DNA of 64,000 nucleotides from Adineta ricciae (lineage: Eukaryota > Rotifera > Eurotatoria > Adinetida > Adinetidae), in contig CAJNOJ010000229.1 of NCBI GenBank assembly GCA_905250025.1, forward strand, positions 104,146 to 168,145, in the 5' to 3' direction. The position numbers were made by a program, and so were the translations under genes. Within the stretch, counting starts at the first letter, position 1; each line of letters begins with the position of its first letter. Shown here piece after piece: positions 4,331 to 56,766 of this stretch. The notes beneath the pieces are model-generated. The model was not told where the DNA came from, ran no database searches, and saw only the letters and a list, made by a program, of their open reading frames with translations.

Positions 4331-4579
4331 AGATCGCTCCTGGATGGACTCGAACCAACAATCCTCCGGTTAGGAACCGGTTGCGTTAACCATTGCGCCA
4401 CAAGAGCAGATAAAGAACAGCGCGAAAATAATTTTATTTTTGCTACAGTCACTGAATAAAATCAGAGTATGTGAAGACGGTTATAATGCAAATGAAAGAT
4501 AAACAGAACTTTGAATGATAGACGATCTGCGCACTTTCACAGTTAAGATGATAGAACATTCAAATCTTGAAACTTTGTC
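4331..4579. repeat. End of piece c1, identical to the start of c3 (34821-35069)
   Basis: These 249 bases read identical to 34821-35069, and both stretches end or begin exactly at an N. The other haplotype (from 32853) differs, for example GACGGTTATAATG here against GACGATTGTAATG there. Exact identity limited to piece ends is the signature of an unmerged contig overlap and not of a biological repeat (inference). Confidence 0.85.
4335..4407 (-). tRNA. tRNA-Arg (anticodon CCU), copy in the c1 end overlap
   Basis: The minus strand folds as a 73-nt tRNA. The acceptor GCTCTTG pairs with CAGGAGC (one G-U), the D arm is GCG...CGC, and the anticodon stem CCGG/CCGG has loop TTCCTAA, giving anticodon CCT (reads AGG, Arg). 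The T arm contains GGTTCGAGTCC, with one mismatch in the stem. There is no intron. This copy is part of the 249-base end overlap and is probably the same physical gene as 34825-34897. Confidence 0.9.
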
Positions 4580-4580
4580 N
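4580..4580. other. Single-N assembly gap
   Basis: One N separates c1 from c2. Sequence to the left continues at 35070; sequence to the right is unrelated to it. The decayed ART frame is cut at this base. It is treated here as a probable wrong join. Confidence 0.8.
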
Positions 4581-4947
4581 GGAGATCCAGAGTTTACGCC
4601 ATTACTGGATTGATACGTATCAGTTAAATCCATAAGGTTTCCTCTGATTTTGATTTGCAGCACGATCTCTATTACTCCATGTGAAATAAACTTCTGTAGG
4701 TTTCGATGAATCGTGACATAACTATTTGTACAGTGCGTCAACGATTCTATATTTTTTGCCTTTCGTTTTACGATTAAAGTGTAACACAAGCGTTCGATAA
4801 GAGAATTCATTTGGCTTTTTCCAACGTGAGGCCTTTGTTCTGTCGTCAGTTGTATTGCAAATACAACGTGAAAACGAACGAAGTTGATACTAAACGATTT
4901 CAAAATCGAAATCTGCAGGGTTTACATTTATTAACGCGATTATAGAA
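4581..4947. other. Upstream region of the ART-fold-like gene
   Basis: No gene is recognised. A minus-strand open frame over 4481-4903 runs across the N and cannot be real as drawn. Confidence 0.4.
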
Positions 4948-5691
4948 ATGGCAACTAACTATTGGCTTGAAGAAGATCTTGAACGTGTTATACAATCATT
5001 TAATCCAGCTAGTTTTTTTGGACTTCCTGCTTCTATGTTTAACTCAAAAGGTGATCTGCGCTACTGCAATACGGAACCTCTGAAATTAACCCGTGGACAT
5101 TGGGACTATTTCACCCCTTTCAAAGGATGGATACGCTATGGCTTAGACATCGACAAGTTTGGTAATAGTGGTGCACAATGGCTGGCTTGCGATGGTGCTG
5201 CCGGTGAATGGGCAGTTGGCTTCCATGGTCTTCGACGTGATGTATTAGAAGTGTTGAGACGCATAGCGTTCGAAGGATTCAAAGTCTTTCAAGGAAAGCA
5301 CAGTGAATGGGGCGCGAAGTCAAAGGATACTGGTCCCAATGCATCTTTATTTCAAGAGAAAATTTGTGGCAATGGTATATTTTTAACACCGCAACTGAGA
5401 TATTTGACAGACAACATCGAAAACTGTAGATTAATGAAACCAATTCAATATAATAAGTATTATTATATAGATGTTGCTCTACAATGCCGCATACAACCGA
5501 AAAAGATTCGAGTGCCTGAATGTGCTGGCAACCAATATTATGTTATTAACAATCCAATATACGCGCGTCCATATGGAATTCTTGTTCGATTTATGACCGA
5601 AGCCGAAGCAATCACTATTTTTGCTGATAATAACTATAGCCTAGATCCAGTTATTCCATTTGTCGAAGAGAACGTAACTCCCGTGAACTAA
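4948..5691 (+). CDS. Single-exon protein with a possible ADP-ribosyltransferase-like fold
   Basis: A 247-residue protein without signal peptide or membrane segment, so probably cytosolic. The central part has GEWAVGFHGLRR (about 89-100), then EGFKVF and later GNGIFLTPQLRY (about 144-155). This order, HG followed by an EGF turn and then G-x-G-I-x-x-x-P, resembles the NAD-binding core of PARP-like folds (HGT...GF...G.G.YFS). The C-terminal part ends RPYGILVRF. The family is not firmly recognised: similar proteins of unknown function exist in protists, fungi and rotifers as far as I recall. The usual third PARP residue (Glu) is not obvious, so activity is uncertain. A polyadenylation signal AATAAA lies at 5694-5699. 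No counterpart appears in H1 within this window. Confidence is high that it is a gene and low for function. Confidence 0.7.
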   Translation: MATNYWLEEDLERVIQSFNPASFFGLPASMFNSKGDLRYCNTEPLKLTRGHWDYFTPFKGWIRYGLDIDKFGNSGAQWLACDGAAGEWAVGFHGLRRDVLEVLRRIAFEGFKVFQGKHSEWGAKSKDTGPNASLFQEKICGNGIFLTPQLRYLTDNIENCRLMKPIQYNKYYYIDVALQCRIQPKKIRVPECAGNQYYVINNPIYARPYGILVRFMTEAEAITIFADNNYSLDPVIPFVEENVTPVN

Positions 5692-5868
5692 TCAATAAAT
5701 CCACCTTGTATTTGCGAACAACCAATACATGATCGTGTAAAATACGATATTGCTGTCTCTGAAAAGCTCGTTGAGAATGAATTTGATACAATGATTTTAT
5801 ACGTTCGTTCTTTTCTTCATTGTGTTTTATCATTTATCCCCATAATTGTTTCTACGAATAAACCAACA

Positions 5869-6646
5869 ATGAAAGTTGCTTGTTTTCATGATACAAATGA
5901 TGTACGCATAGAACAAACACCAATTCCGTCGGTGAAGTTTGTCGGAATCTGTCGAACAGATGCGCATGAATATTCTCATGGTACATTGATTGTTCCTATG
6001 AAAGAACCGCAACCAGTAAACGGGCATTGTGGTGCAACAATAATGAGACATGAGTTTTCTGGTGTAGTTGTCGAAGTCGGAGAGAATGTTTGCAGTGGTA
6101 ATGATAAACCAGGTGACTGAGTTGTCGTAGAACCACTTTTGAGAAATCAAGGGAGCATTTATACGTACAAAAACTGGAGAACACAATCTGTCCTAGTCAA
6201 TGGTGCATATGCTGTTCATTTGAGTGACTTGAAATCAGGTATCTATTCGTCATGAGTTATGTGCTATCACTTCTCCTTGATTCGAGGTGAAACATGTGTC
6301 ATATTTTATGCTGGTCCAATCGGTCTGCTGTGTCTTCAAGCAGCCGTAGCTGCCGATGCTACTCATGCTATTGTTGTAAAGATTTCGGACAAACGTCTCA
6401 AGAAAGCTCGGGAAATGGATGCGTCATTGGTTATCAATGGGAAAGAAGAAAGTGTTCCGCAGCAAATCAAAAACTAATTACATTGATGATCTTGGTGCAC
6501 ATGTTTATTTCGATGCAACTGGTTTAGAATCAACATTTACAATAGGCATTGCATCTTTGAGAAACGATGCTAGGGCTATACTGATAGCCATGGTTGAAGA
6601 ACCAGTCAAATATTTTCAAATGTGTTTATATCTTGCTACAAATTAA
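5869..6646 (+). pseudogene. Broken zinc alcohol dehydrogenase, butanediol/sorbitol dehydrogenase type
   Basis: The frame starts MKVACFHDTNDVRIEQTPIP, typical of medium-chain Zn dehydrogenases that oxidise secondary alcohols with NAD. It then has a catalytic-Cys region reading GICRTDAHEY (families usually have GICGTD), HEFSGVVVEVGENV and, after a TGA at 6118-6120, VVVEP. Further on, in other frames, lie the nucleotide-binding AGPIGLLCLQAA and DATGLESTFTIG. Lesions are a short deletion after the first 24 residues, the in-frame TGA, at least two further frame changes, and loss of the last third (usual length about 350). The gene is clearly dead. The lesions do not look like introns because no GT-AG pair restores the frame at 6118. 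Confidence 0.85.
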
Positions 6647-6703
6647 AATAATTACACACGAAACAGATACAATGCACGTTCGTAGGGAACAGTTTTTAAC
6701 TGT

Positions 6704-7745
6704 CTATGCGCTTTCAGGCAGTGGAGCAACCTGGTTAACCAATACTATGTTTCTTTGCCAGCGATTTCGGTAGATTGTTGAAGTCACATGAATTAGCTGT
6801 TGGCGAAATCGACTCGAGACGCAGATGTATACATAAAATTGACTCTACAATTACACAAACAGAAAAAAAGTATTTCGCTGTCCTATATTGACTTACTGAA
6901 AAATTCAAGTAAAATATGCAAAGAGCCAAAGTCGTGGCGAATTGCAATATTTCACTAGCGAACGGATTGTGCCTTATGTTGTTGTCTAAGCTGAGTATGT
7001 TAACAATGAGATAAGGAGTCGAAACGAAAACGATGCTAATGGCTTGCATCAGCACTATTGTTGTCATTTGCTTGTCTAATTCACGTCGCACCAGTGGCAC
7101 CATTCGATAAGATAAGTTTCTTACATTGTGATACGCCAATAAAGCGAATAAGACATCGATAAAAATAGGTAGAAAGCCAATGAATACAAGCGTATAACCT
7201 TTGACGTTGTAATCTTGAAATACTACATTGGAACTGATGCAAGAAAATTTGCCGGTAGCTGATGATTGGACATGGTCATAATAAATCAAATATGGAATAC
7301 TATAGAGCATCCAAATGACGACGAACGAGATGCTTGTACGATGAGCTATTTTGATGCTGTTAAATGATCGCCAACGAGGACTGGAGCAAGTAGCGAAGTA
7401 TTGATCAACTGTTGCCAAACAGATACAAGTGAACGTTATTAATGAACATGCTGAACCAAGATATACTCGGAATTTACAGTAGACTACGGATTGAAGAGTC
7501 CAATCAATACCGAAACCGGAGATCATAATACGAGAGAGAAAAGATGCGAACAATTGACCAATACTAACGATTGACATAACAATCAAGTAAAATGCACAGG
7601 AATTTTCTCGAAACGTGCGAAGACTGAGAAAAACAATGAGATTTAATGCATTACCAATCAGACCAGCGATGAGCATAGGAATACCCAGATAGATTATTAT
7701 TTGTTGAGAAATAATGGTCCATGATGAATTAGCTGTTGATGACAT
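6704..7745 (-). CDS. Class A GPCR (rotifer-type orphan receptor)
   Basis: A seven-membrane-segment receptor at the plasma membrane, predicted as 329 residues in two exons: 7745-6897 and 6844-6704. The intron (6896-6845, 52 bp, phase 0) starts GTAAGT and ends TTGTAG. Splicing restores the end of segment 7 and helix 8 (SQFYVYICVSSRFRQQL); unspliced, the frame runs into unrelated residues. The N-terminus has an N-glycosylation site (NSS). The DRY motif at the end of segment 3 is DQY (LATVDQYFAT). Cysteines suited to the conserved disulfide are in VVYCKFRVY and FSCISS. The family is of the FMRFamide-receptor-like type expanded in rotifers; the ligand is unknown. Relics of a paralogue lie at 3065-3330 and 31591-31860. 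Confidence 0.85.
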
Positions 7746-8420
7746 GTCGGAATCAAAAGTCCCTACTCCTATCTATTAGTAGAAGATTTCTCATATGTGT
7801 ATTTGAAATTTAATATTTGATGAATTAAAAAGGGGCTAGTGAGTTCGCTCAGCGAAATAGAAGACTTTGTAAATGACAAGAAAATCTTTTAAGTATGACG
7901 AAGATCTCACAATTTGCTTCAGTCAGGATTAGAGAAGCTCGGAGAATGTTTGCTCTGATAATCGACAGAAGGGAAATAAAACGAGATGTGACAATTTTCA
8001 TCGTATTCACCGAGTGGTTAATTAGATGTTGCATACCTCTACGAAGTTCTCGCTGCTATTGCATCTTTTTATTTGTAAATAGGTCAATAGAGTGTTTAAT
8101 TAAATTCCAAACCGTGGGAAATGTGCTCGCGCAACTAATAAAAAAATGCTATCTTGGTCGTCTCAGTAAATAATGATTATAAGTGTAAAAAAAAAACTAA
8201 TTATGAAAAAGTTTTCTTTATTCCCATATTCATGTCATGTAAGACACAAATAATTGAGAAAGTTTAACTTTTGACTTGAATACTTCATCAAAATTCATTC
8301 AACTTGGTTCTTCATACGCATATAAGTTGAAATCTAAATTCAACTTTCATTTCAGTATTCGATTATTCTTTTCAATATGAATCTGACTTGATGAGATACA
8401 TTAAGTGCCAAAAACTTATT
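7746..8420. other. Intergenic DNA upstream of the GPCR
   Basis: About 7750-7850 is the GPCR upstream region shared with the relics. Overlapping open frames on both strands at 7849-8173 have no recognisable features. Nothing else is supported. Confidence 0.4.
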
Positions 8421-9288
8421 AGCTTTCATAAACAGCGCGATATTTGTAATATTATGCTAGTGTATGAATTGTCATTCACTACTTAACATACACAAGAATC
8501 TGATACTGTTGTAGATCACATCTTTCATATAGTTGTCGTTGTGAACAAAGTGTGTTCTTGCAAGCCTTGTAGAAGTAGCGTGTAGGGGTTAGAGTGTCGG
8601 CAGTGAAAGTCAGAAGTTGTGATCTACTCAAATGTATACCTTCAAAAGAACAATAACAAATATGAGTTATATATGTATAGAAATGAAACTAAATCAATTC
8701 CTATATGCTTAAACTAACACGAGTCAGATGTCTTGGTAAATATGTATAAATATTCATTTATATTGCATACTCGAATTTTTGAATAACTGACTTCAAGTTT
8801 TAAGTTTGACGCTACTGATGAGTATCCAAGGGTACCGTTTAGCATATGATTTCAATTCACAATTTATTCTCATATAATAGCGTATGAACCCTAAAGAAAA
8901 CGACACCACATTCTTTAGTTGAAGACGTTTTAATAAAAGACATAGATGGGTTTTTGTTGCAGTAGCAAAACTAAAGAGACTATAATGGTTTATCGTAAAT
9001 AGATTCAAATAGTAGGTGGCTTATTCAAAGAAACTCATCGTGTACCATTTCTATCTCATGTGTTAGTTTTAAAACACGAAGATAATTATCATTACTGTTT
9101 GCTGTTTACATAGAACTGAAAATGATGTATTTTTCTTTATTTTTTCTCCTATTTTTTTGCATTCTCTCGCTATTTCATCAAACGACTCCACAATAGAAAA
9201 AGAATGACGACTTACACATTTCCATTTTGGATATTAGTCATGTTCATAAGCCCTTCCATAGTCCGATAAGTGCAACGTTGTATTCACC
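8421..9288. repeat. Non-coding block, H2 copy (partner 1-871)
   Basis: This is the counterpart of 1-871, with a few percent differences and small indels, for example a shorter T run near 9150. No coding sequence is seen. It is probably the allele of 1-871. Confidence 0.8.
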
Positions 9289-11925
9289 TGTGATAAATTG
9301 ATTCTGAAAGTACAGGTTGACAATGTAGCGTTTCAATATGTGGATAATTATTTTCTCCGACGTTTCTGCTGTCATATAGAACATTATTGAGGCAGTTATC
9401 TGCACCAAATTTATTTTCACCATCTATAATTCAAATTTGTACAAATCTAACAGATGTGAAGTGAATCTTTACGAGCCACCGTCCATTTCTCAACCTGTGA
9501 TACAATAAATCTTGTAGGATGACAGTATTTCTTTCAAGTTTGCTAACGAAAATCAGCAACACATTAATATTAATTGAGGAGACGACATTCCAGGTCGACC
9601 AGGGATCGGTGCTAATCGATTATTTGTATTTGAAAATTTCTGTATTGCATTGACTAAGGAAAGATATGTATGATTCGAATTTCATTCTTTTAGAAAGAAA
9701 AGTAGTACCTTTCATTGAATAAATTTCGTCATAGTAGTGCCTTGAAGCTTAATTAGTGTATATATTTCGGATACTTGTGAATTTACTATGCTAATTGATT
9801 ACGTAGTAGAGGTGTCTACAGGGCAGGGTGGCTCTACTATTCATGCGTCAACTATGAACTCATAAAAACAGCTGTTTTAGTTAAAGGATAAAGAAAATAC
9901 TTCAAGAACATTGTCTTGCTTACTAATGATGCCTGATTTGCTCATCAGTTGTACACTTATGAAACTCTATTCAATTTGTGAGAGAATTCTAACTACATTA
10001 ACATGGTTATAACAATATAATGAATCTCTCCTATCGACTATCCTGCAGGACAGGGCAGGGTAGGACAGTACAAGGCAGGATAAAGAAACGTGTCGTATGA
10101 TTACCTTTATTACGTAGCTGCGAAGGATTTATATTGGAATTAGTCATCGGGAAAATATTTTCATTTTGCGCGAAATATTGAGTATCTTCATGACTGTAAT
10201 GCGCATTATTATTTCAGATTGACAGTTCGACAGGAGGTAAAAAATCAGCGATTAATAGGACTGCAATTACTGTCAATTAAGAATCTTCCATACCGAACAA
10301 GGTGTGTACAGGTGAAGAGAGAAAAGAAAGCGCTGTTATCGTTCTTGTTTGAGTAAACACTTGATAATTGAGCAAATATTCGTACTTTGCTCTTTTGTGT
10401 CACAGTGAAACAAATTTTTCTCTCGAAATTGTGAAAAAGATTAACTAAATTTTATTTACTCTATGGAACTTTACCAGATATACAGTATTACTCAGCTTCA
10501 AGAGTAAAAATAATCTCTGTTGGTATGCCATGGTACAGAAGAGAAAGTTACAATGACCTGTAGCGCATCATTATCGTATCGTGTATAAGCCTGTGGATTA
10601 TGATTGATTTTGTTAAAGAAAGTTATTTATCAATTTAGAATTTGTTTTGATGAAATTCATAATAAAGTAGAAACTTACTTTCTAGTTTGTATAAATCGCG
10701 AAAAACAACAAGACGATCAATTAGTGAAGTGAAGGACTTATAAACACCAGAATGGTCATAGTCATAGGTCATCATTAAACTGCTAGTACACGAAGCGCTG
10801 TGTTTTCTGCCTCCATTGATACAGCGACTCGTTGGTTGATTATTGCACTAGTACTGGGTTGGTTCTATTAGAAAGATGACACATTCACGGTTCGTCACAT
10901 TCTGTTTTTTTTTTATAAATTTTTGCGGGACGAGTAAAAAGCTTAGTTGACTTCAGCAGGATAAAACCATCACTTTGATCCTTCAGAACAAAACTAAGCA
11001 CAAAAGCATAAAATGATTGAAAATATATGACAGCAATATGTTTGAAATAAATTATGAATACAGATGAAAATGTTATTGAAGCATAGATATTTCTTTACAG
11101 ATAAATTGACGATTTGCAACGATCGATCGGCAGCTTTCCAACAGGAATCATAATCACTCGTTAGATTCTATTCGAATTTGATATAATGAATTGTGAGGAT
11201 TCTACACGAAAACGATATTAATAAGAAGCAAAGAAATATTCGGATGGTCAATGTGAATCATGATAGGGAGTTCATGTTACCACACTTTAGGATGATCTTA
11301 TGGACGATTTGAGTGTTAAAGACGCTGCCATTTGAGTGAGTACGTTTATACTGAGCTAACATTGGAGCTAACTATTCGTACTCTTAACTATCATCGACTT
11401 TAATCGAAAACAAGTCACAAACACCGGTGATTGCTCATCCATAGCTAACCAATACCAAACGAAAACATTCTTCGTCAAATGGAGAAAAATTGAGAAAAAG
11501 CAACAAAAAGTATGGGTGAATAAAAGAAACGAAAAGAGAAATGAAAGGGATCTCCATTTGCATATAAGCAGCTGCATCGTCGATATTTTCTCATTCAAAC
11601 GAAAGCAACTTCGACGCAATAATAAGTCCCGGCCAAACTGCCTTATCGAAATCAGTAAGGACATAAAAGCTTTTCTCAGACTCCGTCTTTCAGCGTAAAC
11701 AAATGTTTCACTACTGGAGGGATCTGCATGTATATGGGCTTAACAAGCATCGAGCTCTTTCATATAGAATGGGATGATGACATATGGTTTGTTTATTCAA
11801 CAGACTTTGAAGATTAGGAATTTGATTACACGAACACTGTGCTGTGACCAACTCGTGTTCGAAGAAAATGTGGATCATAGTTGTCTAAAGCACATGACAG
11901 CCATATCCACCCCGGAAACCTCCAT
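9289..11925. other. Gene-poor DNA with GGCAGG-type patches
   Basis: No gene is recognised in 2.6 kb. Two short patches (about 9820-9835 and 10044-10085) are built from CAGGACAGGGCAGGG words, the reverse complement of the minisatellite at 11930-12100. The stretch 11215-11350 matches 1690-1830. Open frames at 11368-11698 overlap on both strands and look like chance. Confidence 0.4.
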
Positions 11926-11929
11926 CTTG

Positions 11930-12100
11930 TCCTGCCCTGCCGCGTCTTGCCCTGCCCTGCCCTGCCGCGTCTTGTCCTGCCCTGCCCTGCCGCGTCTTGC
12001 CCTGCCCTGCCGCGTCTTGTCCTGCCCTGCCCTGCCCTGCCGCGTCTTGTCCTGCCCTGCCCTACCGCGTCTTGCCCTGCCCTGCCGCGCCCTGTTTTGT
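11930..12100. repeat. C/T-rich minisatellite
   Basis: A tandem array made of CCTGC words and CCGCGTCTTG spacers, in variable units of about 15, 20 and 25 bases. It is strongly GC-rich against the AT-rich surroundings. Overlapping plus-strand open frames over it are products of the repeat. Related words in the opposite orientation occur near 10044-10085. Confidence 0.85.
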
Positions 12101-12191
12101 CTCAGAATAAGGGAGGACAGATCGGAATGATATGCCCTGTAAGCAACTCCGATGTGAACGCAGTACTGTCAGTGACAGTAGGTAACAATTA

Positions 12192-13930
12192 CTAGTTATT
12201 CCCTTTTCTGAAAGAAAGGGTTACAGCGTTCTAAAATTGGTGGCTCAAAAGCTAAACGTTTGTGAGTTTGTCCAATCCAATCAGATTGCAGCTTTTTATA
12301 AACCAATGAAACCTTAGTGGTGACTATCTGGAAATGATTTACCTGAGGTAATCAAGGTCAAGGATCATGAATCCGGTGTTAGTTTTTTAAAATTTCAATT
12401 AGCTAATTACTAATTAAGTAGCGAAAACTATTTCGGTTGTGGAGTAAGAGCTGACCGAACGGTCATTGATATCAAAGAATTCGAATTTGAGATTAGTTTT
12501 TCGTTACTCAACAAGATGCGTCTTATACCTTTCTGTTTCTAATGCAAGTATTTATTTCTGTATTTTCTAAAATATTGTGTAGAAGATGGTGGACGAAACG
12601 CCATCCCTAGACACGATGTGTGCGAAGATAGTGGCTTAAGCCTTTGCGCAAAAAGATTTAGTATGTCTTACATTATGGTATTTGCAATGGAAGAAATCAG
12701 AAAAAAACAGTATCTATTTAATATTGTATTTGTCTTGTGAGCTTTGATAAGTCAGACCTTTCTATAGGATTTTCAGGAAAATAGGCCTTCCAAAAGTTAT
12801 GCTCCTCAGTGCAATTTCATCTTATTAACCATAGAGACAATTGCTAGGTAAATAGTAAAATAATATTGTAAACATATGAAGCAATATGACGGATGCTCTT
12901 TCCATGACAAATCATAATATAAAACTTTCTACCTAGTTTCTTTCAGCGATCAAATGAATGGCAAGCCACTACTTTAAAAGCGAGAATGAAAGGAAACATA
13001 GTCGTTTACTTTGAAAGTTAATCGAAGGTGAAAGGCATAGTAGAGGTAACCATGGCAATGGCTATTCGTGAGTGAAAGATCGGTTAATAGATAGACATTT
13101 ATTTGGAGAATCGGGTTGAAAATGAGGATTGAAATAGCCAGACAGTCAATGATTTTCTGAAGAAATGTAATTGCTATATTGTTGTGAACGAGATTAATCT
13201 ATTATCAGCTGCTAATACTGGAGAGAAGAATAAAGTGTATGCTTTAGATTACACTATCGTCTGAAATTTGAATAACTCTGAGGAGAACTGACCCATGATA
13301 ATCGAGTTGACTTTTTGGCCTGGAAATAGGAAACTGATTATGTAAGCATCAACGACTAGGCGTTAATATCCCAGATTAACTTTATAGTATACATCTGGAA
13401 CAACCGTACCAAACTTGAATAAAGATTTTTAAGAGGGATTTCATGGATGTTCCTTCATGAAAGTATTCAAAAGAGTATCATTTTCGTGAAAGTAGAGAAA
13501 AGAATCAATTGTTAGCTAAAAAGCACAGGCTAATATGCAAACTTAGCAAGTCGACAATTATACACCTTTCTTTTGTGGGCAACGTAGTAAAGTGTCCTGA
13601 AAAACCTTCATGTGTATAATATGAAAGTAGAAAACAGACTATAAAGATTCATGTGTAGCCGTGAGTGACTGGCTAGGGGAGGAGGCCTACGAATGATTAA
13701 CCATTAAGTGATGGAGTTTTTAGTAAACATAGCTAGTACTTGAAAACTATTCTCTAAAAAATGGGTAATTGATTCGGTTCATGAAACAAGAAGAATGTTT
13801 GTCTTGTATTAATTCTCGTGCGGGACACGATGCCATGGTCTAGCCGAAATTCAGTAATAACCGCAGTGCCCTATTTGTTTTTCAATGTGTCTGAATATAT
13901 TCGGCAGTAGAACAATTCTTTCAGAAAAGG
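12192..13930 (-). mobile_element. Helitron-like non-autonomous repeat, copy 1
   Basis: This region shares blocks with 63335-64000 and 47150-48500: the start (CCCTTTTCTGA, then AATCAGATTGCAGC), GAAGATGGTG and neighbouring words near 12580, GAAAGTTAATCGAAGGTG near 13015, and GTCTGAATATATTC near 13890. Read on the minus strand, the left end is a hairpin (CCCTTTCT-TTCA-GAAAAGGG), then AATAA, then CTAG followed by T. This resembles the Helitron 3' terminus (hairpin then CTRR, insertion before T). No coding capacity is seen. The right end is approximate. The shared family is seen directly; the Helitron class is inference. Confidence 0.5.
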
Positions 13931-34820: not shown

Positions 34821-34824
34821 AGAT

Positions 34825-42680: not shown

Positions 42681-42728
42681 CGTGCTCAAGAAAAATGTCA
42701 GATAATCTAGAAAAACAATCCATAACAT

Positions 42729-45225: not shown

Positions 45226-45425
45226 ATATAAACAGAAACTTCAGTGATATTCATAGAGGATGATATCTACGAGAAAGAGCTGAGCGAGTCCACAGGCGAG
45301 CGTTACTTGCTGTAGCAATCGTTTCTTTTCTCTCACTGTAGCAGACACTTCTATCGTGTTTTCTTATTTTCTTTTTTCATGTAATAACTTAAGATTCTCT
45401 CTCGTTAACAATTCTTCGTCGTAAA

Positions 45426-46974: not shown

Positions 46975-48505
46975 AGATGAACTTCGTAATGAACAAGCAT
47001 CTATGCGCCAATTAACTCTATTTTTTATCTCATTTTCTCGTTACTAATGAATATGTTCTTCGGTTTTTTCTTTCATTCGAAAGGTTCTACCCGTTCGACA
47101 TTTTTTCTTTCGACGTTTTCGATACATACCATAATCAGGGTCGAGGATTTCGAATATGACCTTAGTATTTTCGTGGTCGCGAATCTTCGGCTTCTTTCTC
47201 ACTAGTCTCTAAAAGAGGTATTTTTCTGTATCTTCCTAAAATCTTTTGCAGAGGCTGGTGGTGTGAAAGCTACTGCTGGCTGTGGTGTAGGCCAATATGG
47301 TAGTTTGGAGTTTACAGAAAAATATTTAATACACCATACATCATGATATTTCTAATTGAAGAAATCAGCAGAAGTGGTATGATCTAAGTATCATTTTTGT
47401 CCTGTATGCTGCGATAGTTCATGTCTTTTAGAAGGAATTCAGTGGAAATAGTTTGCAAAGTCATATACCCGTCAGTACAGGGTGCTAAATAATGTTATAG
47501 AAGGGGTGACGCTATAATTGCGATTCAGAGGTATGGTGAATTTTATACCAAATGGAAGCCCGTGAAAAATGGGATCTACTGAGACTAAACAGTAAGACCT
47601 TAAGAGGATTTCGTAGGTGAAACTTGAAAATAACGAAATTTTCTCTGAAAAAAAATCGCTAAGAATCTCTTTTATCGAATAGTATTTGAAACAAGGAACA
47701 TATGACAAAGGAGTTTACTTTCTTATTACTTGGTGAATACAATCAATAATAATTATGGTATCCATTAGCCTTCTTTACTGCACAAAGTCTGGATGGATAC
47801 GAACACAAAAGAGTTTCAAATAGTTCGGTATCTTCTTTCATGCCAGTCATAACATTTTCAATGTGCATCTTGAGTGTCTTCAAGACATCGAATCAGTAGA
47901 TCCCATTTTTCACGGGCTTTCATTTGGTATAAAATTCATCATACATCTGAATCGGAATTATAGCGTCACCCCCTTCTATAATATTATTTACCGCCCTGTA
48001 CAATTCGGTCTCAATAACTACAGAGACATGGACTACATACAAATACTGTTGTAAATATAGGGAGCACTGATGAATATTTGCTTGAGAACAAATCATAAAA
48101 TAAGACTTATCATCTATTTTCTTTTGGTAATCAAATGAATGAAAAATCACCATTTTCGAAGTAGCAATGAAAGGAAGCACAGTTATTCAGGTTTAAAGTT
48201 AATCAGAGGTGAAAAGCATAACAGAGATATCATGGGAACGGCGAGCCGTTAGTGACCGACCGGAGGGAGGCCGACAAACGACTATACGTTTAAGTTCAAG
48301 ATTAATCTTCAAGTGTACATTTGGAATAACCTTATTAGACTGCAAAGGTTTCTGGAAAATGACAAATTGGTACGGTTCTTGAAAAAGAAACCTCTGTCCT
48401 CTATCTACTCTAGCGTGTGACATAGTGGCATGATTCAGCTGAATACTAGTAGCAATCAGTGCCTGATCTGTCTTTCAAAGTTTCTGAATGTATTTAATAT
48501 TAGAA
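46975..48505. mobile_element. Helitron-like repeat family, copy 2 (right part), with nested MITE
   Basis: About 47150-47475 and 48001-48505 follow the order of copy 1 (12480-13920), with blocks such as TTTTGCAGAGGCTGGTGG, AGTTAATCAGAGGTGAAAAGC and TCTGAATGTATTTAATATT. The middle is interrupted by the MITE at 47478-47998. The left part may be the tandem array and FLYWCH gene, making 44590-48505 one larger element (inference). The right edge abuts the carbonic anhydrase upstream region. Confidence 0.5.
47478..47998. mobile_element. MITE with ~105-bp terminal inverted repeats, TA target duplication
   Basis: The left arm starts CAGGGTGCTAAATAATGTTA; the right arm reads GGTAAATAATATTATAGAAG in reverse complement after CAGGGC. 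The arms match for about 105 bases, down to TGGGATCTACTGA. Both ends are flanked by TA (47476-47477 and 47999-48000). The ~310-base centre has no coding capacity. The TA duplication and CAGGG ends fit a Tc1/mariner-related non-autonomous element (inference). A related uninterrupted sequence lies at 63939-63985. Confidence 0.85.
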
Positions 48506-48796
48506 AAATAAAGAATACTTTAATTTGTGTAACAAATTGAAACGTTGTTCTACGTCCTTTTTTTCTATAAATCTACATTGCAATTTTGCGCTCACCATTG
48601 AGTTATTCTTATAATTGCGATTACATCTGATTCATTCTGTTCTGTCGATGTATTTCTTTCTGTATGACACTATGATTACATGTATGTACATATGTAATAT
48701 ACGTGCGCAAAAGACGAAGAGTGATTATGACACTCGAGACGAACTGAAATAGTACATTGGCTGTTTTACACAATATTCTGTCTCCGGTCAACTCTG

Positions 48797-48804
48797 TATA
48801 AATA
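48797..48804 (+). promoter_or_regulatory. TATA box of carbonic anhydrase, H1
   Basis: TATAAATA, 72 bases before the ATG at 48869. In H2 the same position reads TATAAATG. Confidence 0.5.
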
Positions 48805-48868
48805 AATCAAAAGAAAAGAGAGGAAGTGAGCGAAAAATATCAAACCAGACGACAGAATTCGATCGAGA

Positions 48869-49930
48869 ATGAAAACATACTTGTCGTTCGTCTTATTACT
48901 CACTGTTGTTGATAAAATTTTTGCAGGCAATGGTGAATATTGGAATTATGAAGATCACGGTTCGTTTCTTCGCAAACTAAATACTTTTAGGCAGACTCTC
49001 ATATGCACATACATTAATAGGTCCTTACACATGGTCACAAACATATCCTGAATGTGCTGGCTGGCGTCAATCGCCACTCAATCTAGATTACTTTGATGTT
49101 GTCTACAAAAAATTTCCACCCTTCGTATTCTCTTCAAGTTTCGATCGTCCTCATGTTTTTAATTTGAAAAATAACGGACATACAGTTGTCGGCGAATTAC
49201 CAACGGGAATGCCACGAAATGAAATTCCACAACTAAGTGGCGGTGATCTGCCTGGAATTTTTCGATTTACAAACTTTCATTTACATTGGTGTGTACTTTT
49301 GTATGCATTGCAGGGATAGTTTCGTAAATCGTGTTTTCTTTTGTAGGGGTGAGTCACCGTCAGAAGGATCTGAACATACGATAAATCATGTACACGGTGC
49401 TGGAGAAGCACACTTCGTGTTTACTAATGAAGTAACAAAGCAAACAGCTGTATTTGCATTTATCATTACCATGTTGCCCGAAGGAGAATCGAGCGCATGG
49501 GAGGCATATGTTCATAACGCGGTCAAACTCATTCGTCACGGTACACACACACAGTTTGTAGGAAATCTAATGAAACTGATGGAAAATGGAAATTATTTTC
49601 GAGATTTTTGGAGATACAATGGTTCGTTAACGACGCCACCTTGTTCAGAAGGAATCATTTGTAAGCAGCAGTACAAATACAACTTCTCATTTTTGCTTTT
49701 CTTTCTATAAAGGGACGATATTCAGTCATCATATCATTTTTTCATACAATGAACTACAAGCCTTGTCATTGAATGTTTTACATAAAGATTTTCGTCCAAT
49801 TCAATTGAGAAATAATCGAGTTATTTATCATTCAACACTTGGCAATACTGCTGATTCCCTCCGATACTGTTTCTCCTGGCTACGAGCAATGCCGACAATT
49901 TTTATCATTGTGATCTTTTTAGACTTTTAA
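48869..49930 (+). CDS. Alpha carbonic anhydrase, secreted or membrane-anchored, H1
   Basis: Predicted exons 48869-48959, 49021-49288, 49347-49660 and 49713-49930; 296 residues, all GT-AG and frame-keeping. Signal peptide MKTYLSFVLLLTVVDKIFA, then YWNYEDHGGPYTW and QSPLNL. The three zinc histidines are visible: two in FHLHWG (made by splicing exons 2-3) and one in EAHFVF. GSEHT and LTTPPCSEG are also typical. The C-terminus is hydrophobic (FIIVIFLDF), suggesting a GPI anchor or membrane tail. The enzyme interconverts CO2 and bicarbonate at the cell surface. Next gene downstream is the proton channel Hv1. The allele at 59859-60920 has the same structure. Confidence 0.9.
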
Positions 49931-50427
49931 AAAGAAATCTTTATTATATACCGTCCTTTTAATGTCAAAAATGATCGGTAACACAATGGAAAATAATAAA
50001 CAAGGAGATTGGTCGATTTTGTTGAATTATATCGTATTGACACAACGTACTATTCTATGTTTATAAAGTTTAATTAAGCTCTCTTTAATATGCATATTTT
50101 ATCTTGTGATAAGTGTTGTTTTTTCTCATTCTTTACTCTCTGTGTTAGACTTCGACTAAAAAAGCACGCGGAAAAAAAGCGATTTCTTCGCTGACGAGAG
50201 AAAGAAATTTTTTGTTCTGTGTGCGTCATGGTTTCTTTCCTTCCTATTTGCTTGTCGTCCCAAAAAAGAATGTACTTTTCAATGCCTTTCGCGATCTACA
50301 AGCGGAACTATATAATTCCGAGCACTCATCATTCACTACACGACGGTGAAAAAGAAAATACCAGTGTAGCAATAACAGCCTAAATTGAAAAATTGACACA
50401 GAAAAACTTACTGAGCATTCTTTATCG
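49931..50427. other. Spacer between carbonic anhydrase and Hv1, H1
   Basis: Non-coding, allelic to 60921-61417. AATAAA at about 49994 may be the carbonic anhydrase polyadenylation signal. Nothing else is seen. Confidence 0.5.
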
Positions 50428-51557
50428 ATGCCTAATGCCATAGTCGGCGATGCTGATTTAGCGGGTAAGATTTCATACACGTTAGTACAACAAACAGAAA
50501 CGAATAGACTTTAATAATTGTTCGTTCATCGTCGTTTCTTTTCTAGTACAAGGAACAAAAGAAGTTGAGTTGTCGGAAAATACAAGCCAACCCATTTCAT
50601 TACACGAGAATGGTTCAGTGACCGTTCCACTTTTCACGAAAACATCAACGACTAGCTTGACAGACCATCCTGAAGTGAACAACAAAGGATGTTGTGTAAT
50701 TGTTCATCGATGGTGGAACGTTGATTATCGTTGTCAACACCAAATTATTGAATTTGTCGAAAGACCCATATTTCATATGTTCATTATAATGTTTGTGTTA
50801 ATCGATTGCTTTCTTGTCATAGGTGAGCTCATGTTCGACTTTTTTAAACTTCGAGAACCTTGTCATTCGAAAAATTCTCATCATGAACACCATCATCAAT
50901 TTGAAATGATTGCTGAAATCCTCCATTATTCGTCATTGATCTTACTGGGAATGTTTCTTCTCGAAGTTGTTGTAAAAATTTATGCATTCGGCCGGCAATG
51001 GTGGAATTTTCATAACAAGAAAATGGAATGGCTAGATGCAATCATTGTGATCGTATCGTTTGCTGTTGATCTACTACTATTGCATAAAACGAGTATGATT
51101 GCTGAGATTTCTCTGCTGTTCATTTCTATTCGTCTATGGAGATTCGTAAGTGAAAGACATTATTCGATCGAAAAGCATCACATTTGTTTCATTTTTAGAT
51201 TCGAATAGTCAACAGTGAGTATCTTTGTTTCTTTTCTCTTGTTCGATTACAATATTTCTATTCTTTTTATGAATAGGCGTGGCACAATCTGTTCGATCAC
51301 AAGATGAAACTCGAAGAGAACATTTGGCAGCAACATACATTCAAATGATTGAGTTACTGTTAAAAATCTCCGAACAAAAGACCAATACGATGTCGGAGTT
51401 TTGTAATGACTTCGAATTCGAAAGTCGAATTCAAAACTACATCCAAATCGATCAGCAATGTCATCTTATGATTGAACATTGCTCAAAACCATCATCATTG
51501 AACACTATTCATGACATGATCCATCGCTTACAGAATGCCATCGATCAGATGGAATAA
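50428..51557 (+). CDS. Voltage-gated proton channel Hv1-like, H1
   Basis: Predicted exons 50428-50464, 50547-51145, 51199-51214 and 51277-51557; 310 residues. It has a cytosolic N-terminus and four membrane segments forming a voltage-sensor domain without a pore domain. S1 holds the Asp needed for proton selectivity in Hv1 (VLIDCFLVIGELMFD). S4 has the Hv1 signature R-x-W-R-x-x-R-x-x-N (IRLWRFIRIVNS), assembled across a 16-base exon. The C-terminal ~90 residues are helical with heptad character (LLLKISEQKTNTM), fitting the coiled coil that dimerises Hv1. It lets protons leave the cell on depolarisation. Exon 1 is short (12 codons), and its start has support only from frame and splice sites. 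The allele is 61418-62547. Confidence 0.9.
51199..51214 (+). other. 16-base microexon in Hv1 S4, H1
   Basis: ATTCGAATAGTCAACA, flanked by TTTTTAG and GTGAGT. It encodes IRIVN plus one base and supplies the third S4 Arg and the Asn. Identical in H2 at 62189-62204. Confidence 0.85.
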
Positions 51558-51740
51558 AAACGAGTGAAAGTCAGAAGTTTATTTTAGCATACCAAAGCTA
51601 TTTCCAGATTTCGTACAAAAAAGGCGAAGTGCGCCTGTGTTATTACTGTTTTGTATGACACTATAGCCCAAAACTATACCAACCAACACTCAAGAAAAAC
51701 GTCTTCTTAAAACTTAGTAATAACATATTCTTTATGTAAA

Positions 51741-52330
51741 TTATAATTTCTGGTCCAGGCCAATTTCGAATTTTTGTACTCGATAATTTTCTTGACGATC
51801 AAAGAATAAATCTGTAAGATTATTTAAGTACCCTAACCATCTTCCTTTACCGTTATCATTAATAACAACTTTCTCTCGCGCATCACCCTCTGCACCAACG
51901 TGCAATATTCGGCGATTCCACCAACCTGAGACATACAGTTGACCCTGATGATCCTTCGCTATTCCTGCAAAGACTTTTCCTATAGTATGCTTATTTGCAT
52001 ATTTTCCTCATTCTACGATACGATCATTCTCTTTATCTTTTATATACAGAGAATAATTATCATGAACCCAAATAAACATAGGATTATGTATTTGATCCAG
52101 ACGAGAGCTGCAGAACCACGTCCGCCCGCATCTATTGTCCCGACTGTCTCTCCTTGTCTCTATCGTTTGACACTATAAGATTCCACATCCGACACATAGA
52201 GAGAACCATCTTTATCCATTGCTAAACTATGACAGAATATTTGATAGACTATAACTTGTGGGTTTTTACTCCCATTATAAGACCATCGAAGTATTCGACC
52301 AGAGCCAGGACGAAAGTACATTTACTTGGC
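51741..52330 (-). pseudogene. NHL-repeat protein gene, H1, broken
   Basis: Allele of 62731-63339. On the minus strand the frame gives GRILRWSYNG, QIFCHS and LYVSDVESYSVKR, then TAG at 52162-52160 where H2 has TGG (Trp). A 27-base deletion near 52005 removes nine residues. NHL proteins form beta-propellers, often extracellular in rotifers. Upstream of the NHL homology the flank differs from H2. Confidence 0.8.
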
Positions 52331-52849
52331 ATCGAATACTCGTACGTGTACGCGTACGGAATAAAGCAAATTTGTGTACTTGTTGTCCAAGTACAAGTCG
52401 CATACTTTTCAAGTACCTCGGATCATTTTCGAAAATACACAGCTGTGTATACAGTTCACAGAAATAGTTCAACTTTCAATGATTGCAACTATGTCGTTAC
52501 TGAGTCTTCATGTGGTTTCACAGCATAAATAATGTGATCTTATTACGAGTTGTATGAACTTTGTCTATATACCGTTGTCTTTCCGCTTCTTTGTTCGAGA
52601 ACAACGTCGAGAATGAGACATCATAAAGATATTAGTAAAACAACAAACAGAAACAACACCTAGAAATGAGGAGGAGAGGACTAAACTTTTATCGCAGAGA
52701 GTAGACAAAGATCGTCTCGTCCTTCGCCTGAAAGCACGTAAAAAAGAATCACCTGAAACACAATAGACTAGAGAGTACACGCAATAAAGAAATAAAAGAC
52801 AACTGACGGTCACAGTATCTGCTGATTAACACGTAAAAAAAACTAACGT
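52331..52849. other. Intergenic DNA beside the hAT fragment
   Basis: No gene is recognised. A palindromic CGTACGTGTACGCGTACG-like stretch lies near 52340-52360. Part may belong to the hAT element. Confidence 0.35.
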
Positions 52850-53640
52850 CTAGACGAGTTCCGTGAGTATTGAAGTTCGTCTGGGTGATAGAATTAATCC
52901 TGCTTGGCTAAAAGCTCTCTCGACAGGAGCTGATGAAGCCTGAATGGAAAATACACGTCTGACAACAGTTTCCAACGAAGACAATTGAGAACGTTGCCAA
53001 TACACTGAGAATTTCGCTCGCACAGGATCGGCTAAATACATGTTCAGCTCATCGATCGGACTGAGATTTGACTCAAATATCGAATTAACACCGTCATCAT
53101 AATGGAAAAGCTTTAGTCTTTTCACCCCTTGGACATTACCTGATTCTGTGGTAGAATTGTTGAAAGTACGAGGCGACGATGATGAGCGTCTTGTACGATA
53201 TTGCACTAAATTTGAACTGGCGTCACTGATCTGTCTGCAGTTGTCTAACACTCTTTCGGCCAACAGCTGCTTCATCTTCGATTCAATGCTGGGATTGTAA
53301 TTCATTTGCTGAAGCCAGTGAAACTTGAGCTGATGATCCAGGACAGTTCCCGCAAAATAGTCTGGGTCATAATAGGACTCGTCATCGGACACAGATTGAT
53401 GCATTAGATACTGAACAATGCCGGAAAATCGTTTGTTTATTGACAGATCGAGTTGCGTAATCAGTTTCTTGAGATAAACCAAAGATTCTTTCATGTTCTT
53501 CAAGTGATCCAGGAGATGAACGACCGACGGCACGACAAGGCATACCGATGAGTAAAAAGATGTATAACCACGTTGAATATCTCTGATGTTTTCAGAGTGC
53601 TTGCTGGTTGTTGCGTTTCGATGTCTTCTTCAAGTATAAA
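52850..53640 (-). mobile_element. hAT transposase fragment (C-terminal part)
   Basis: The minus-strand frame contains YTSFYSSVCLVVPSVVHLLDHL, then a charged linker, then SSAPVERAFSQAGLILSPRRTS, the hAT C-terminal dimerisation motif. The frame ends in a TAG at about 52850 just short of the usual end, and the N-terminal zinc-finger and catalytic half is missing. A dead cut-and-paste transposon. Terminal repeats were not found. Confidence 0.85.
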
Positions 53641-55029
53641 CAGATTGTACTGATGTAAATAATTGTACAATTGCTGGCATAACGAGATAGAGAGTAATAT
53701 TTTCTAGGCTTTTGTTGTTGGTCTGAAAGTTGAGAATAATATTCTCATATGAAAATAAACTCTTCGGTCACGTCTGATGACGTCTACTTTATTATTTAAT
53801 ATTGAACAGGACTTTCGTAGTTTGTCTTGTTGCTTTTACAGTCATTTTCATTTGAGCGGACGTGACGCAGTAAATGCATCATAGGAAATCGATGATATTT
53901 GATGCTGAATAGAGAAACTAAAAGAGATATGTACAAAGTAGATGATAGTTTGAATCAGCTGAGAACACGTATACAAAAGAGGGTGATGATCCAATCCAAG
54001 ATGGTTTTCTGGACTTTATGAGAATGATTTCTTTTATATTAAAATCAAGTATTTTTTCATACTTATGGTAACATATGTCGTTTTGCGCATTTCCTTTCTC
54101 TTAACAAATTCAATTAAACAATTAATGCATAGATGTTATCAATGTTTAGAGAAACGAAAAAGTCATGTACTTATTCTTTTTCCATGAAGAAAGTACTTTA
54201 TAAGAACGTCGTCTATCTTCGAGAAACGAGAGTGAGCTTGACGTAATATATAATTATTACAGTTAGTTAACAACATCTAGTTTTGACGTTGAATGCTGAT
54301 ATGATCACACAAAATTTTTAAATAATGATTGTCGAGGAAAACTCGTGTCCTGTTCAGCTTGGCTTGATCTCATAGTTGTTGCATAAACAGATTAAGAAAA
54401 TTAATAGTATATAGATAATTTGTGTCACTTTAAGAGTCGTTGTAGAACAATAATATTCGATCCAACATCAATTACGGAAGAATATTTCAGAAATATCGTG
54501 CTTCTTTCCAACGACGAGAATGATGAATCTCATGTGATACGCAAATAGATGAGCTTATATGTAAACAAGAGAAGACTATTTCGCAAATGATTTTCATGAC
54601 ATCGATCAGTAACAACACTGATGACATCAATGTGTTTCACCATGCCCTAGGGAAAATCTTGGAGCTTTCAGCCACTGAACCTTGCAGGAACAGACGCGGG
54701 TCTTGCAAGGATCCACTGGTTTTTCCTGAGGAAACGCGAAAATCCTGAAAGAAGTGTGTAGCCACGGTTTTCCAGGATCCTGTCAAGTTTTCAGTTGAAC
54801 GAACGACAGATAATAGTAGGATTCATCACTGTTTTAATGCCAGGATTCGACCAAGAAATCAAAAAATCCTGGAAGAAGTGTGTAGCCACAGAATTAAAGG
54901 ATCCTGACAAGATATTGAACAGAAAAATCAAGGAATTATCAAGTTTATTGTCGTAATCTTTAAAGGATCCTTCCAGGATTTAACAAACTAAAAAGCAAAA
55001 AAAAACTAATTCAAGATCCTATGCTGTCC
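53641..55029. other. Non-coding DNA with AGGATCCT-type repeats at the end of c3
   Basis: No gene. In 54650-55020 the words AATCCTG(A/G)AAGAAGTGTGTAGCCAC (54741 and 54865) and AGGATCCT recur, giving about two units of roughly 124 bases plus partial ones. This ends at the N at 55030, so repeat-caused assembly breakage is plausible. Confidence 0.5.
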
Positions 55030-55030
55030 A
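55030..55030. other. Single-N assembly gap
   Basis: Left of it is repeat DNA unrelated to the lipase; right of it is the middle of lipase exon 1. Probable wrong join; the right side fits the end of c2 at 34819. Confidence 0.8.
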
Positions 55031-56766
55031 GCTTTTAGGATCTTGCCAGNGATCAATACGCAATTCTCTCTCTTCAAAAGGTAAATAGTGTGTTTGATCG
55101 ATGAGGAGAGTATACTCATCAGTTGCTTTTCCTTTGCGACGATTTAGAAAGCAACCTATTCAAGCAGAAATAATCTCTTCTTCAAATTTGGGCTCGTTCG
55201 ACCGTGCGAAACCGATCAAACTGATTATTCATGGTTTTACTGATCAATCATCGAGTGCTTGGGTAGTTAACATGACGCAAGAACTGTTGAAACAGGTTAG
55301 TAGCCATTTTCTAATCAATAACTAAATACACTTTTCTCTAATTGGATTTGTAGGAAGATATGAATGTCATTACTGTTGATTGGTCTGGTGGCAATCAATT
55401 TCCTTATGGACAGGCCGTGGCCAACACCGTCATTGTTGCAGCTGTTATTCGACAACTTCTTCAAGCAATGGTCAATACCGGTGCAAAACCGCAACAAATG
55501 CATTTAATTGGTCATAGTTTGGGTGCGCATGTATCAAGTTATGTAGGACGAGATTTTCACAATTTAGGAAGAATATCTGGCTTAGGTATTGATCCATGTG
55601 AGGAAGTTCAAAGCATTTATACGCTTTTTCCTAAGTATAGATCCTGCCGGACCGGAATTCTATAATTCTCTCATTTCTGATCGCCTTGATCCATCCGATG
55701 CTATATTTGTGGATGTCATTCATACTGATGGTGCACCACGGGTTCAGTCCGGTTTCGGTCATTTAGATACATTAGGACATGTTGATTTCTATCCTAACGG
55801 CGGTTCTGCCCAGCCAAGTGAGTTTCTATACATTCATTGACAAATATCACGTTTTCCTTTTCTCCAATCAAGCTTGTGGTAGCAATACCGGAGATGTTCT
55901 TCTACAATCAGCATGAAACTTAATCAGTACTTTCAATATAGGACGTGAGTCTAACCTCATCTCTAGCGTTTTCATATGAGCTGCCGATTTCTGGAGTTTA
56001 GATGCCGCTAGCTCAATGTCCTGCAATCATATGTCAGCAGTATACTATTACACTGATTCGATTAATTCACATTCGCCAGCTTTTGCTTATCCTTGTTCGG
56101 ATTATAAAAGTTTTGAACGAGGCCTTTGCACATCTTGTGGTTCGGCGTTTGATCAATGTCAACGCGCCGGTTACCACGCTTCATCGTTGAAAACACTTGG
56201 TAAACTGTATCTTATGACTTTGAACGGAGTCAAACCGCCACATTTCGGTCTGTCATACTGTATCAACAGAAAGATGATGAACGACTTAAGTTGAATTTTA
56301 GGTTTTAAATTCAAGGGAACACTTGAATNTAAACAACAAACACGCGGTATCATAAAAATCAAATTCGACGAACAAGAAGAGGAGACATCGCTATTTGAGT
56401 ATGATAGTGTACATACGTTCTTTTATAAGAACCTATATCTGGTCTATTTAGTGAAAAAATACTATTCAGAAGTAGCTCCGTCAATTCAAAAACGATTCTC
56501 ATTGCTCGTCAACCTGCATCATTGAAAGAGATTACCATTTCGTTCAAAAAAAGCCTAAGTTCAAATTTCGGTCTTGGTCTCTCTAATCAATGGAACTTTC
56601 GTTCGGTCAGCATTCTTGATATGCAATCTCATATAAGGCAAGTCATCTACTGACGAATCGTGTCGTAGTATTTGGTTATTTTTCTTTGTTTAGTTACACA
56701 TTTTGTCCAACAACAAATTCAGCGACGATCAAGAGCGGTTCAAAATTGGTCTATAAATTGTGTTGA
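55031..56766 (+). pseudogene. Pancreatic-type lipase, H2, exons 1(part)-end, nonsense codon
   Basis: Continues the exon cut at 34819. Exons: 55031-55080, 55148-55295, 55354-55585, 55641-55817, 55873 onward, then the counterparts of the H1 exons to TGA 56764-56766. GHSLGAH, DPAGPEF and the exon-6 His are kept. In exon 5, TGG of H1 reads TGA at 55914-55916, so the product would end before the catalytic His. An N at 56329 replaces about 16 bases of the PLAT region. Probably a dead allele whose partner (36404-38279) is better preserved. Confidence 0.8.
56329..56329. other. Single-N assembly gap
   Basis: Compared with 37828-37845, about 16 bases (CAAATATGAACGACAG) are replaced by one N. Both sides are colinear with H1, so this join is right in order and only imperfect. 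Confidence 0.75.

What the first reader, a model, noticed from the sequence alone, without database searches (positions are those of the whole stretch)
4331..55031. Two haplotypes appear interleaved in one scaffold
The end of c1 (4331-4579) and the start of c3 (34821-35069) are 249 bases that read identical, both bounded by an N. Separately, lipase exon 1 stops at 34819 and resumes at 55031 with only ~39 bases missing. Joining c1+c3 and c2+c4+c5 yields two colinear gene orders (ADA 3' end, GPCR relic, WAP, tRNA, decayed ART, lipase, ART-PARP, CA, Hv1, NHL). The apparent 28-kb and 11-20-kb duplications would then be alleles and not duplications.
Basis: partly seen in the sequence, partly recalled or inferred. 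Interest (0 to 1): 0.85.

Follow-up and report, generated by a model that had tools for sequence, protein, structure and literature searches.

The report
Two parental haplotypes shuffled into one scaffold
The apparent large duplications in this stretch are the two versions of one chromosome region laid one after the other by the assembly software, a known kind of error that matters because it makes false gene duplications in a rotifer genome.

Summary
The finding holds. The 249-base identity (4331-4579 = 34821-35069) is exact and flush to an N at both ends. The lipase exon breaks at 34819 and resumes at 55051 (not 55031), with 39 bases missing. The window is the 3' end of a 168-kb scaffold of 14 pieces with 12 single-N joins and one 64-N gap. 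Only three piece pairs overlap exactly end to start (150, 221, 249 bases); two of these skip exactly one piece, and that piece is the other allele. Re-sorted, path A (p6-p7-p8-p10-p12) and path B (p5-p9-p11-p13-p14) share 29 of 30 matches in one colinear chain, none inverted (44.3 kb, 92.6% identity). Three queries of shared sequence find no full-length allele-like copy outside this scaffold. At one control locus the allele lies on another contig at 95%, plus two copies at about 68%, the bdelloid 2+2 pattern. Assembly statistics fit Adineta ricciae ARIC003 (inferred). So this is a known class of misassembly. Allele-specific segments (about 21 and 7 kb) remain inside it. Reads were not available.

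The parts
1..4579 (.). c1: 3' end of contig piece p10 (C229:99044-108724), haplotype A
   Evidence: bounded by N at 4580; 94-98% identical to parts of c2; upstream part of p10 also matches c2
4331..4579 (.). suffix of p10, exact 249-base overlap with the start of p12
   Evidence: 249/249 identical, flush
4580..4580 (.). single-N join p10|p11 (haplotype A to B switch)
4581..34819 (.). c2 = piece p11, haplotype B
   Evidence: start is homologous to p10 position 1072 (upstream of the window), end to c3 36507
9289..30416 (.). about 21.1 kb present on haplotype B only; c1 has 1,045 bases (872-1916) there
   Evidence: 20000-21000 gave one match in the genome, itself
27086..30928 (+). 1,280-codon open frame (stop to stop), weakly adenosine-deaminase-like; on haplotype A only its 3' part (from about 1917) remains
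   Evidence: Pfam A_deaminase E 0.0017, below cut-off
872..1916 (.). haplotype-A-specific 1,045 bases containing dispersed repeats
34820..34820 (.). single-N join p11|p12 (B to A switch)
34821..55049 (.). c3 = piece p12, haplotype A, continues c1
   Evidence: flush 249-base overlap with c1; allele of c2 end, c4 and c5
34821..35069 (.). prefix of p12, second print of the 249-base overlap
36508..36546 (.). the 39 bases of c3 that are missing between the end of c2 and the start of c4, inside the lipase exon
41294..48567 (.). about 7.3 kb on haplotype A without counterpart on c5, flanked by a 164-base direct repeat (41130-41293 and 48568-48729, 89%); contains a FLYWCH domain and dispersed repeats
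55050..55050 (.). single-N join p12|p13 (A to B switch)
55051..56328 (.). c4 = piece p13, haplotype B, continues c2
   Evidence: 95.3% to p12 1727-3006 = window 36547-37826; 39-base gap to c2
56329..56329 (.). single-N join p13|p14 within haplotype B; 16 bases missing by homology
56330..64000 (.). c5 = piece p14, haplotype B, end of scaffold
   Evidence: contig ends at 168145 = window 64000; 93-97% to c3 where they match
4334..4408 (-). tRNA-Arg(CCT), same gene copy as 34824-34898
32856..32930 (-). tRNA-Arg(CCT), haplotype B allele
34824..34898 (-). tRNA-Arg(CCT), haplotype A allele (second print of 4334-4408)

Best explanation
The scaffold mixes the two homologous haplotypes of one locus. Shown: contig pieces of haplotype A (p6-p7-p8-p10-p12) and haplotype B (p5-p9-p11-p13-p14) alternate along C229; three of the four A links are exact end-to-start overlaps (p7 to p8 is not); the B pieces abut with small gaps (363, about 850, 39 and 16 bases by homology). 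Inferred: the contig assembler split the strongly heterozygous region into haplotype contigs that tended to break where the haplotypes are identical over about 120 bases or more. The scaffolder, whose read links tie each contig to neighbours of both haplotypes, then laid them in one line and wrote a single N where the implied gap was zero or negative. The apparent duplications in the window are alleles; the 249 bases are one piece of DNA printed twice.
For: (1) Three flush exact suffix-prefix overlaps, p6 to p7 150, p8 to p10 221 (skips p9), p10 to p12 249 (skips p11), the only ones of 20 bases or more among all 14 x 13 ordered pairs of C229 pieces. Inside them the skipped allele differs: p9 is 96.0% over 223 bases; p11 aligns to p12 only to base 179, at 98.9%. 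(2) 29 of 30 A-B matches of at least 150 bases form one colinear chain, none inverted, 44,252 columns at 92.64%; the odd one is a 75% internal repeat. (3) Three queries of shared sequence find full-length allele-level copies only on C229; off C229 the best were 92% over 76 of 249 bases around the tRNA, 79-87% over 53-126 bases and 81% or less. (4) Control: C230:10001-14000 has its allele on C213 at 95% over all 4,000 bases and copies on C106 and C151 at 67-77%. (5) A. ricciae allelic heterozygosity is given as 5.5% (passage of PMC7953838), near the divergence here. (6) 9 of 17 piece ends tested have an A-B exact tract of at least 120 bases within 250 bases, against 9.5% of homologous windows (naive test). 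(7) In C229:54146-168145 no pair of at least 87% identity and more than 200 bases lies within one gap-free piece.
Against: No reads, coverage or second assembly could be examined. Path B has no sequence overlaps and A lacks one at p7-p8, so absence of phase switches there rests on order and small gaps alone. p7 end and p8 start have no exact allele match of 40 bases within 250 bases. Three of the 20 ends of p5-p14 were left out of the end test (p5 start, p12 end, p14 end); p12 end has no allele match, so counting it gives 9 of 18. A 246-base identical tract occurs between haplotypes away from contig ends, so the 249-base identity by itself is not proof. p1-p4 were not sorted into the two paths, and some inverted matches exist there (p1 and p3 against p5 start, up to 372 bases, in a roughly 163-base repeat). 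The similar case on C94 has no flush overlap. A C3 locus had no second copy outside its tRNA.
Confidence: 0.96

Rival explanations
1. Real recent tandem segmental duplications on one chromosome, each with its own allele on the homologue.
For: The copies are same-strand and on one scaffold.
Against: Further alleles would be expected elsewhere (unless collapsed), but three queries find full-length allele-level copies only on C229. True duplications would not end exactly at Ns with flush overlaps that skip a piece, nor tile the other copy with 16-850 base gaps.
Confidence: 0.02
2. Real physical linkage of homologous blocks, the ameiotic architecture reported for the 2013 Adineta vaga assembly.
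For: The organism is probably a bdelloid and homologous blocks do sit on one scaffold. It also explains why no second allele is found elsewhere.
Against: Flush overlaps across skipped pieces are not explained; alternation of blocks would need several switch points, each falling on an N; the control locus has its allele on another contig. Nowell et al. 2018 found only 2 linked homologous blocks in the earlier A. ricciae assembly (section read).
Confidence: 0.015
3. Chimeric DNA from whole-genome amplification (ARIC003 DNA was amplified) joined the haplotypes.
For: The sample history as published (passage), if the identification is right.
Against: The switches coincide with scaffold Ns and not with gap-free chimeric junctions; 0 of 30 A-B matches of at least 150 bases are inverted. 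Amplification chimeras being often inverted is recalled, not from a call.
Confidence: 0.01

Closest known systems
False segmental duplication by haplotype misassembly (Genome Biol 2010, PMC2864568; passages read; authors Kelley and Salzberg are recalled)
   Same: Two haplotype contigs of a heterozygous region placed side by side; overlapping contig ends (their DOC) with a single contained contig (their DCC) between them. p8-p9-p10 has that layout.
   Different: Here the alternation runs over ten pieces and about 135 kb of scaffold, at 92.6% allelic identity, and p11 is not fully contained because of a 21-kb allele-specific segment. Mate pairs could not be tested.
Homologous blocks on one scaffold in bdelloid assemblies (A. 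vaga 2013 as described in Nowell et al. 2018, PMC5916493; sections 9 and 16 and part 1 of section 6 read)
   Same: Homologous (allelic) blocks on the same scaffold of an Adineta genome, in tandem, with scaffold gaps between.
   Different: No palindrome among the A-B matches here; the joins carry direct signs of scaffolding error. That paper already suspected scaffold gaps behind some breaks.
False duplications in vertebrate assemblies (PMC9516828, PMC8081667; search listing only)
   Same: False duplications linked to haplotypes, by their titles and abstract starts.
   Different: Not compared in detail.

Membership tests
Haplotype misassembly (false segmental duplication) | Similar contigs placed near each other in one scaffold | tested here: met
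Haplotype misassembly (false segmental duplication) | Contigs overlap at their very ends, adjacent or with one contained haplotype contig between | tested here: met
   p8 to p10 221 bases with p9 contained; p10 to p12 249 with p11 (only partly contained) between; p6 to p7 150 adjacent. The identity and length cut-offs of the published pipeline were not applied
Haplotype misassembly (false segmental duplication) | No further allele elsewhere in the genome | tested here: met
   three shared-sequence queries, no full-length allele-level copy off C229
Haplotype misassembly (false segmental duplication) | Mate pairs more consistent after merging; half coverage on each copy | not testable with these tools
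   no reads at hand
Real tandem segmental duplication | Each copy has its own allele | tested here: not met
   two allele-level copies, both on C229; collapse of identical alleles cannot be excluded without coverage
Linked homologous blocks / palindromes (A. vaga 2013 type) | Inverted orientation (palindrome) | tested here: not met
   0 of 30 A-B matches inverted
Linked homologous blocks / palindromes (A. vaga 2013 type) | Junction lies in gap-free sequence | tested here: not met
   no such pair within one gap-free piece of C229:54146-168145
Bdelloid degenerate tetraploid genome | Two close alleles plus two distant homoeologues per locus | tested here: met
   C230 locus: C213 95%, C106 and C151 about 68%; of the two control loci on contigs C230 and C3, the C3 one had no second copy outside its tRNA
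Adineta ricciae ARIC003 assembly | 135.6 Mb, N50 283.8 kb at rank 129, GC 35.5% | tested here: inconclusive
   held: 130.46 Mb in 1,033 contigs; C128 283,933, C129 277,305, C130 281,877, C1033 10,113 bases; window GC 36.1%. Fits, but no reference sequence was compared

The most novel reading that the evidence does not exclude
The alternation is real: homologous blocks lie in tandem on one chromosome of this bdelloid, so the chromosome cannot be split into haploid sets, as once claimed for A. vaga, and the Ns merely fall at hard-to-assemble switch points.
Probability: 0.02. Interest if true: 0.75.

Novelty: not a real feature. Interest (0 to 1): 0.22.

Why it matters
The duplications are false, so gene counts, tRNA counts (one locus appears three times), copy numbers of the lipase, ART-like and carbonic anhydrase genes and any 'linked homologues' read from this scaffold are wrong. 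In bdelloids this matters more than usual: homologous blocks on one scaffold were used as evidence for genomes incompatible with meiosis (as described in PMC5916493). The flush overlap that skips a piece is a read-free signature that could be run over whole assemblies to help sort real from false linkage. Of five contigs looked at here (C229, C94, C164, C230, C3; not chosen at random), C94 and C164 also carry same-contig allele-like pairs, so the error may not be rare in this assembly.

Tried and rejected
Telomere-repeat pattern as an organism marker: 38 matches against 44 for the reversed control, uninformative. Rfam small-subunit rRNA search of the genome: not answered twice. Looking in print for the single-N convention of scaffolders: search and passages of PMC6733440 and PMC8110574 did not state it; that SSPACE writes one n for a negative gap is recalled, not shown. 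The idea that a 249-base identity alone proves one locus was dropped, because a 246-base identical tract occurs between haplotypes away from ends. Real duplication, real linkage and amplification chimeras were considered and rejected (see rivals). p1-p4 of the scaffold were aligned but not sorted into paths: p2 and p4 are 96-97% matches of parts of p3 and lie beside it. A search for papers naming at least two of ARIC003, its accession and the species found 3. Of PMC7943196 I saw passages, part 1 of section 5 and section 17; nothing in what I saw mentions interleaved haplotypes. Supplements were not read.
Full report
OBSERVATION. The window has four single Ns (4580, 34820, 55050, 56329). The last 249 bases of c1 equal the first 249 of c3, flush at both ends. 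The c2 end (34819) is homologous to c3 36507 and the c4 start (55051) to c3 36547, so 39 bases are missing inside the first lipase exon. Its coordinates for the 249-base repeat are right.

BEYOND THE WINDOW. The window is bases 104146-168145 of contig C229, which ends at 168145. The rest was fetched. C229 has 13 N runs, twelve of length 1 and one of 64, giving 14 pieces p1-p14. c1 is the end of p10, c2 = p11, c3 = p12, c4 = p13, c5 = p14. Among all ordered pairs of pieces only three have an exact suffix-prefix overlap of 20 bases or more: p6 to p7 (150, adjacent), p8 to p10 (221, skipping p9), p10 to p12 (249, skipping p11). The skipped pieces are alleles of what they interrupt: p9 is 96.3% identical to the end of p8; p11 matches p10 at 91-98% and the first 1.7 kb of p12 at 84-99%, piece by piece.

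TWO PATHS. Path A is p6-p7-p8-p10-p12. Path B is p5-p9-p11-p13-p14. In path B the gaps measured on path A are 363, about 850, 39 and 16 bases (from the coordinates). Comparing all A with all B pieces gives 30 matches of 150 bases or more; 29 form a single colinear chain (44,252 columns, 92.64% identity) and none is inverted; the one left out is a 75% internal repeat. Three of the four A links are sequence-supported: at p8-p10 and p10-p12 the other haplotype differs inside the overlap (96.0% over 223 bases for p9; p11 stops aligning after base 179 of 249). The link p7-p8 and all B links rest on order and gap size.

A CAUTION ON LENGTH. Among exact tracts of at least 60 bases between A and B pieces (102 tracts; 3 of at least 150), one is 246 bases long and lies away from any end. 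So identity over 249 bases could occur between haplotypes. The argument rests on flushness to both piece ends, threefold occurrence, and haplotype-specific bases in the overlap.

HOW THE BREAKS AROSE. 9 of 17 piece ends tested have an exact A-B tract of at least 120 bases within 250 bases, against 9.5% of homologous windows. The test is naive: ends facing each other are not independent, and three of the 20 ends of p5-p14 were left out (p5 start, p12 end, p14 end), of which p12 end has no allele match. The result fits contigs breaking where the haplotypes become indistinguishable. The step from there to the printed order (scaffolding links that do not respect phase, one N for a zero or negative gap) is inferred; the one-N convention is recalled.

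COPY NUMBER. c3 36547-41293 finds, at allele level, only itself and c4/c5; there is also an 80% match over 241 bases further along c3, and off C229 nothing longer than 218 bases or above 87%. The 249 bases find C229 at two places with 100% and one with 99% over 179, then C164 at 92% over 71-76 bases around the tRNA. An upstream p5 query of 4,145 bases finds itself, p8 at 94%, and nothing else above 81%. Sequence inside the c2-only segment (20000-21000) is single-copy, and the adenosine-deaminase-like region 26500-30400 is found once, plus weaker matches of 67-75% on C188, C256 and C299.

CONTROLS. C230:10001-14000 has its allele on C213 at 95% over 4,000 bases and distant copies on C106 and C151; the 40 kb of C230 read have no N and no internal pair except a short repeat at the start. 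A C3 locus (3,075 bases) has no second copy outside its tRNA stretch. A C94 locus has its 91-95% counterpart on the same contig 15.6 kb away on the same strand; reading 27 kb there shows two pieces whose starts are homologous, separated by 44 Ns, but no flush overlap. Two C164 loci 4.8 kb apart are 92.7% identical over 1,573 bases, the second beginning directly after a run of 73 Ns. These contigs were not chosen at random: C94 came from a repeat pattern, C164 and C3 from tRNA hits, C230 because it is next in number.

ORGANISM. The 2+2 copy pattern is that of bdelloid rotifers. The held assembly (130.46 Mb, 1,033 contigs; C1033 10.1 kb, C128 283.9 kb, C129 277.3 kb, C130 281.9 kb) fits Adineta ricciae ARIC003 (135.6 Mb, N50 283.8 kb, rank 129, GC 35.5%; table read) if only the longer scaffolds are held, and does not fit the earlier nAr.v1.8 (174.5 Mb, N50 276.8 kb at rank 176; here C176 is 221.7 kb). 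This is inferred from statistics, not from sequence comparison. ARIC003 DNA came from about 200 animals descended from one and was whole-genome amplified (passage). The methods section names Redundans and SSPACE for two other species and does not say how ARIC003 was scaffolded.

WHAT IS REAL. The tRNA appears three times in the window but is one locus with two alleles. Two allele-specific segments remain: about 21.1 kb on B (9289-30416) against 1,045 bases of repeat-bearing sequence on A (872-1916), which leaves the 1,280-codon frame of B with only its 3' part on A; and about 7.3 kb on A (41294-48567), flanked by a 164-base direct repeat at 89% that is single on c5, as a deletion between repeats on B or an insertion on A would leave. 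Both lie inside gap-free pieces, so they are probably true heterozygous indels, but this was not tested with reads.

COMPARISON. This is the error class described in PMC2864568, including overlapping ends with one contained contig between (passages). Nowell et al. 2018 reported only two same-scaffold homologous blocks in the earlier A. ricciae assembly, both in tandem, and noted that many breaks span scaffold gaps (section read). PMC7953838 states that its palindrome list includes false positives from misassembly (passages).

VERDICT. Observation confirmed, interpretation supported, apparent duplications not real. Interest is low as biology and moderate as a warning and a test.

Noticed in passing
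G000 C94:6193-32000 (L032-L034): A second same-strand allele-like pair on one contig (6214-16400 against 21897-32000, 89-95%), pieces separated by 44 Ns, no flush overlap: probably the same error.
   Followed up: partly
G000 C164:213024-220914 (L004, L005): Two loci 4.8 kb apart, same strand, 92.7% identical over 1,573 bases, the second starting right after 73 Ns; candidate third case.
   Followed up: partly
window 9289-30416 against 872-1916: About 21 kb present on one haplotype only; the adenosine-deaminase-like frame there is cut to its 3' part on the other haplotype.
   Followed up: partly
window 41130-48729: About 7.3 kb on haplotype A only, flanked by a 164-base direct repeat (89%), with a FLYWCH domain frame and stretches repeated in dozens of places in the genome.
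   Followed up: partly
window 52850-53629: hAT-family dimerisation domain on c3 beyond the point where c3 and c5 stop matching.
   Followed up: no
window 872-1021: A roughly 150-base dispersed repeat with some 40 matches elsewhere, mostly 82-90% (capped list).
   Followed up: no
window 15667-17038: Tandem array with a 212-base period, 6.5 copies, inside the 21-kb segment.
   Followed up: no
C229:16856-19025 and 31858-33258 (p2, p4): Two short pieces that match parts of p3 at 96-97% and lie beside it: probably small versions of the same misplacement upstream of the window.
   Followed up: partly
C229 p1, p3 and p5 start; C230:2-633: Tandem repeat of about 163 bases near piece starts of C229 (inverted in p5) and at the start of C230; whether one family was not tested.
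   Followed up: no
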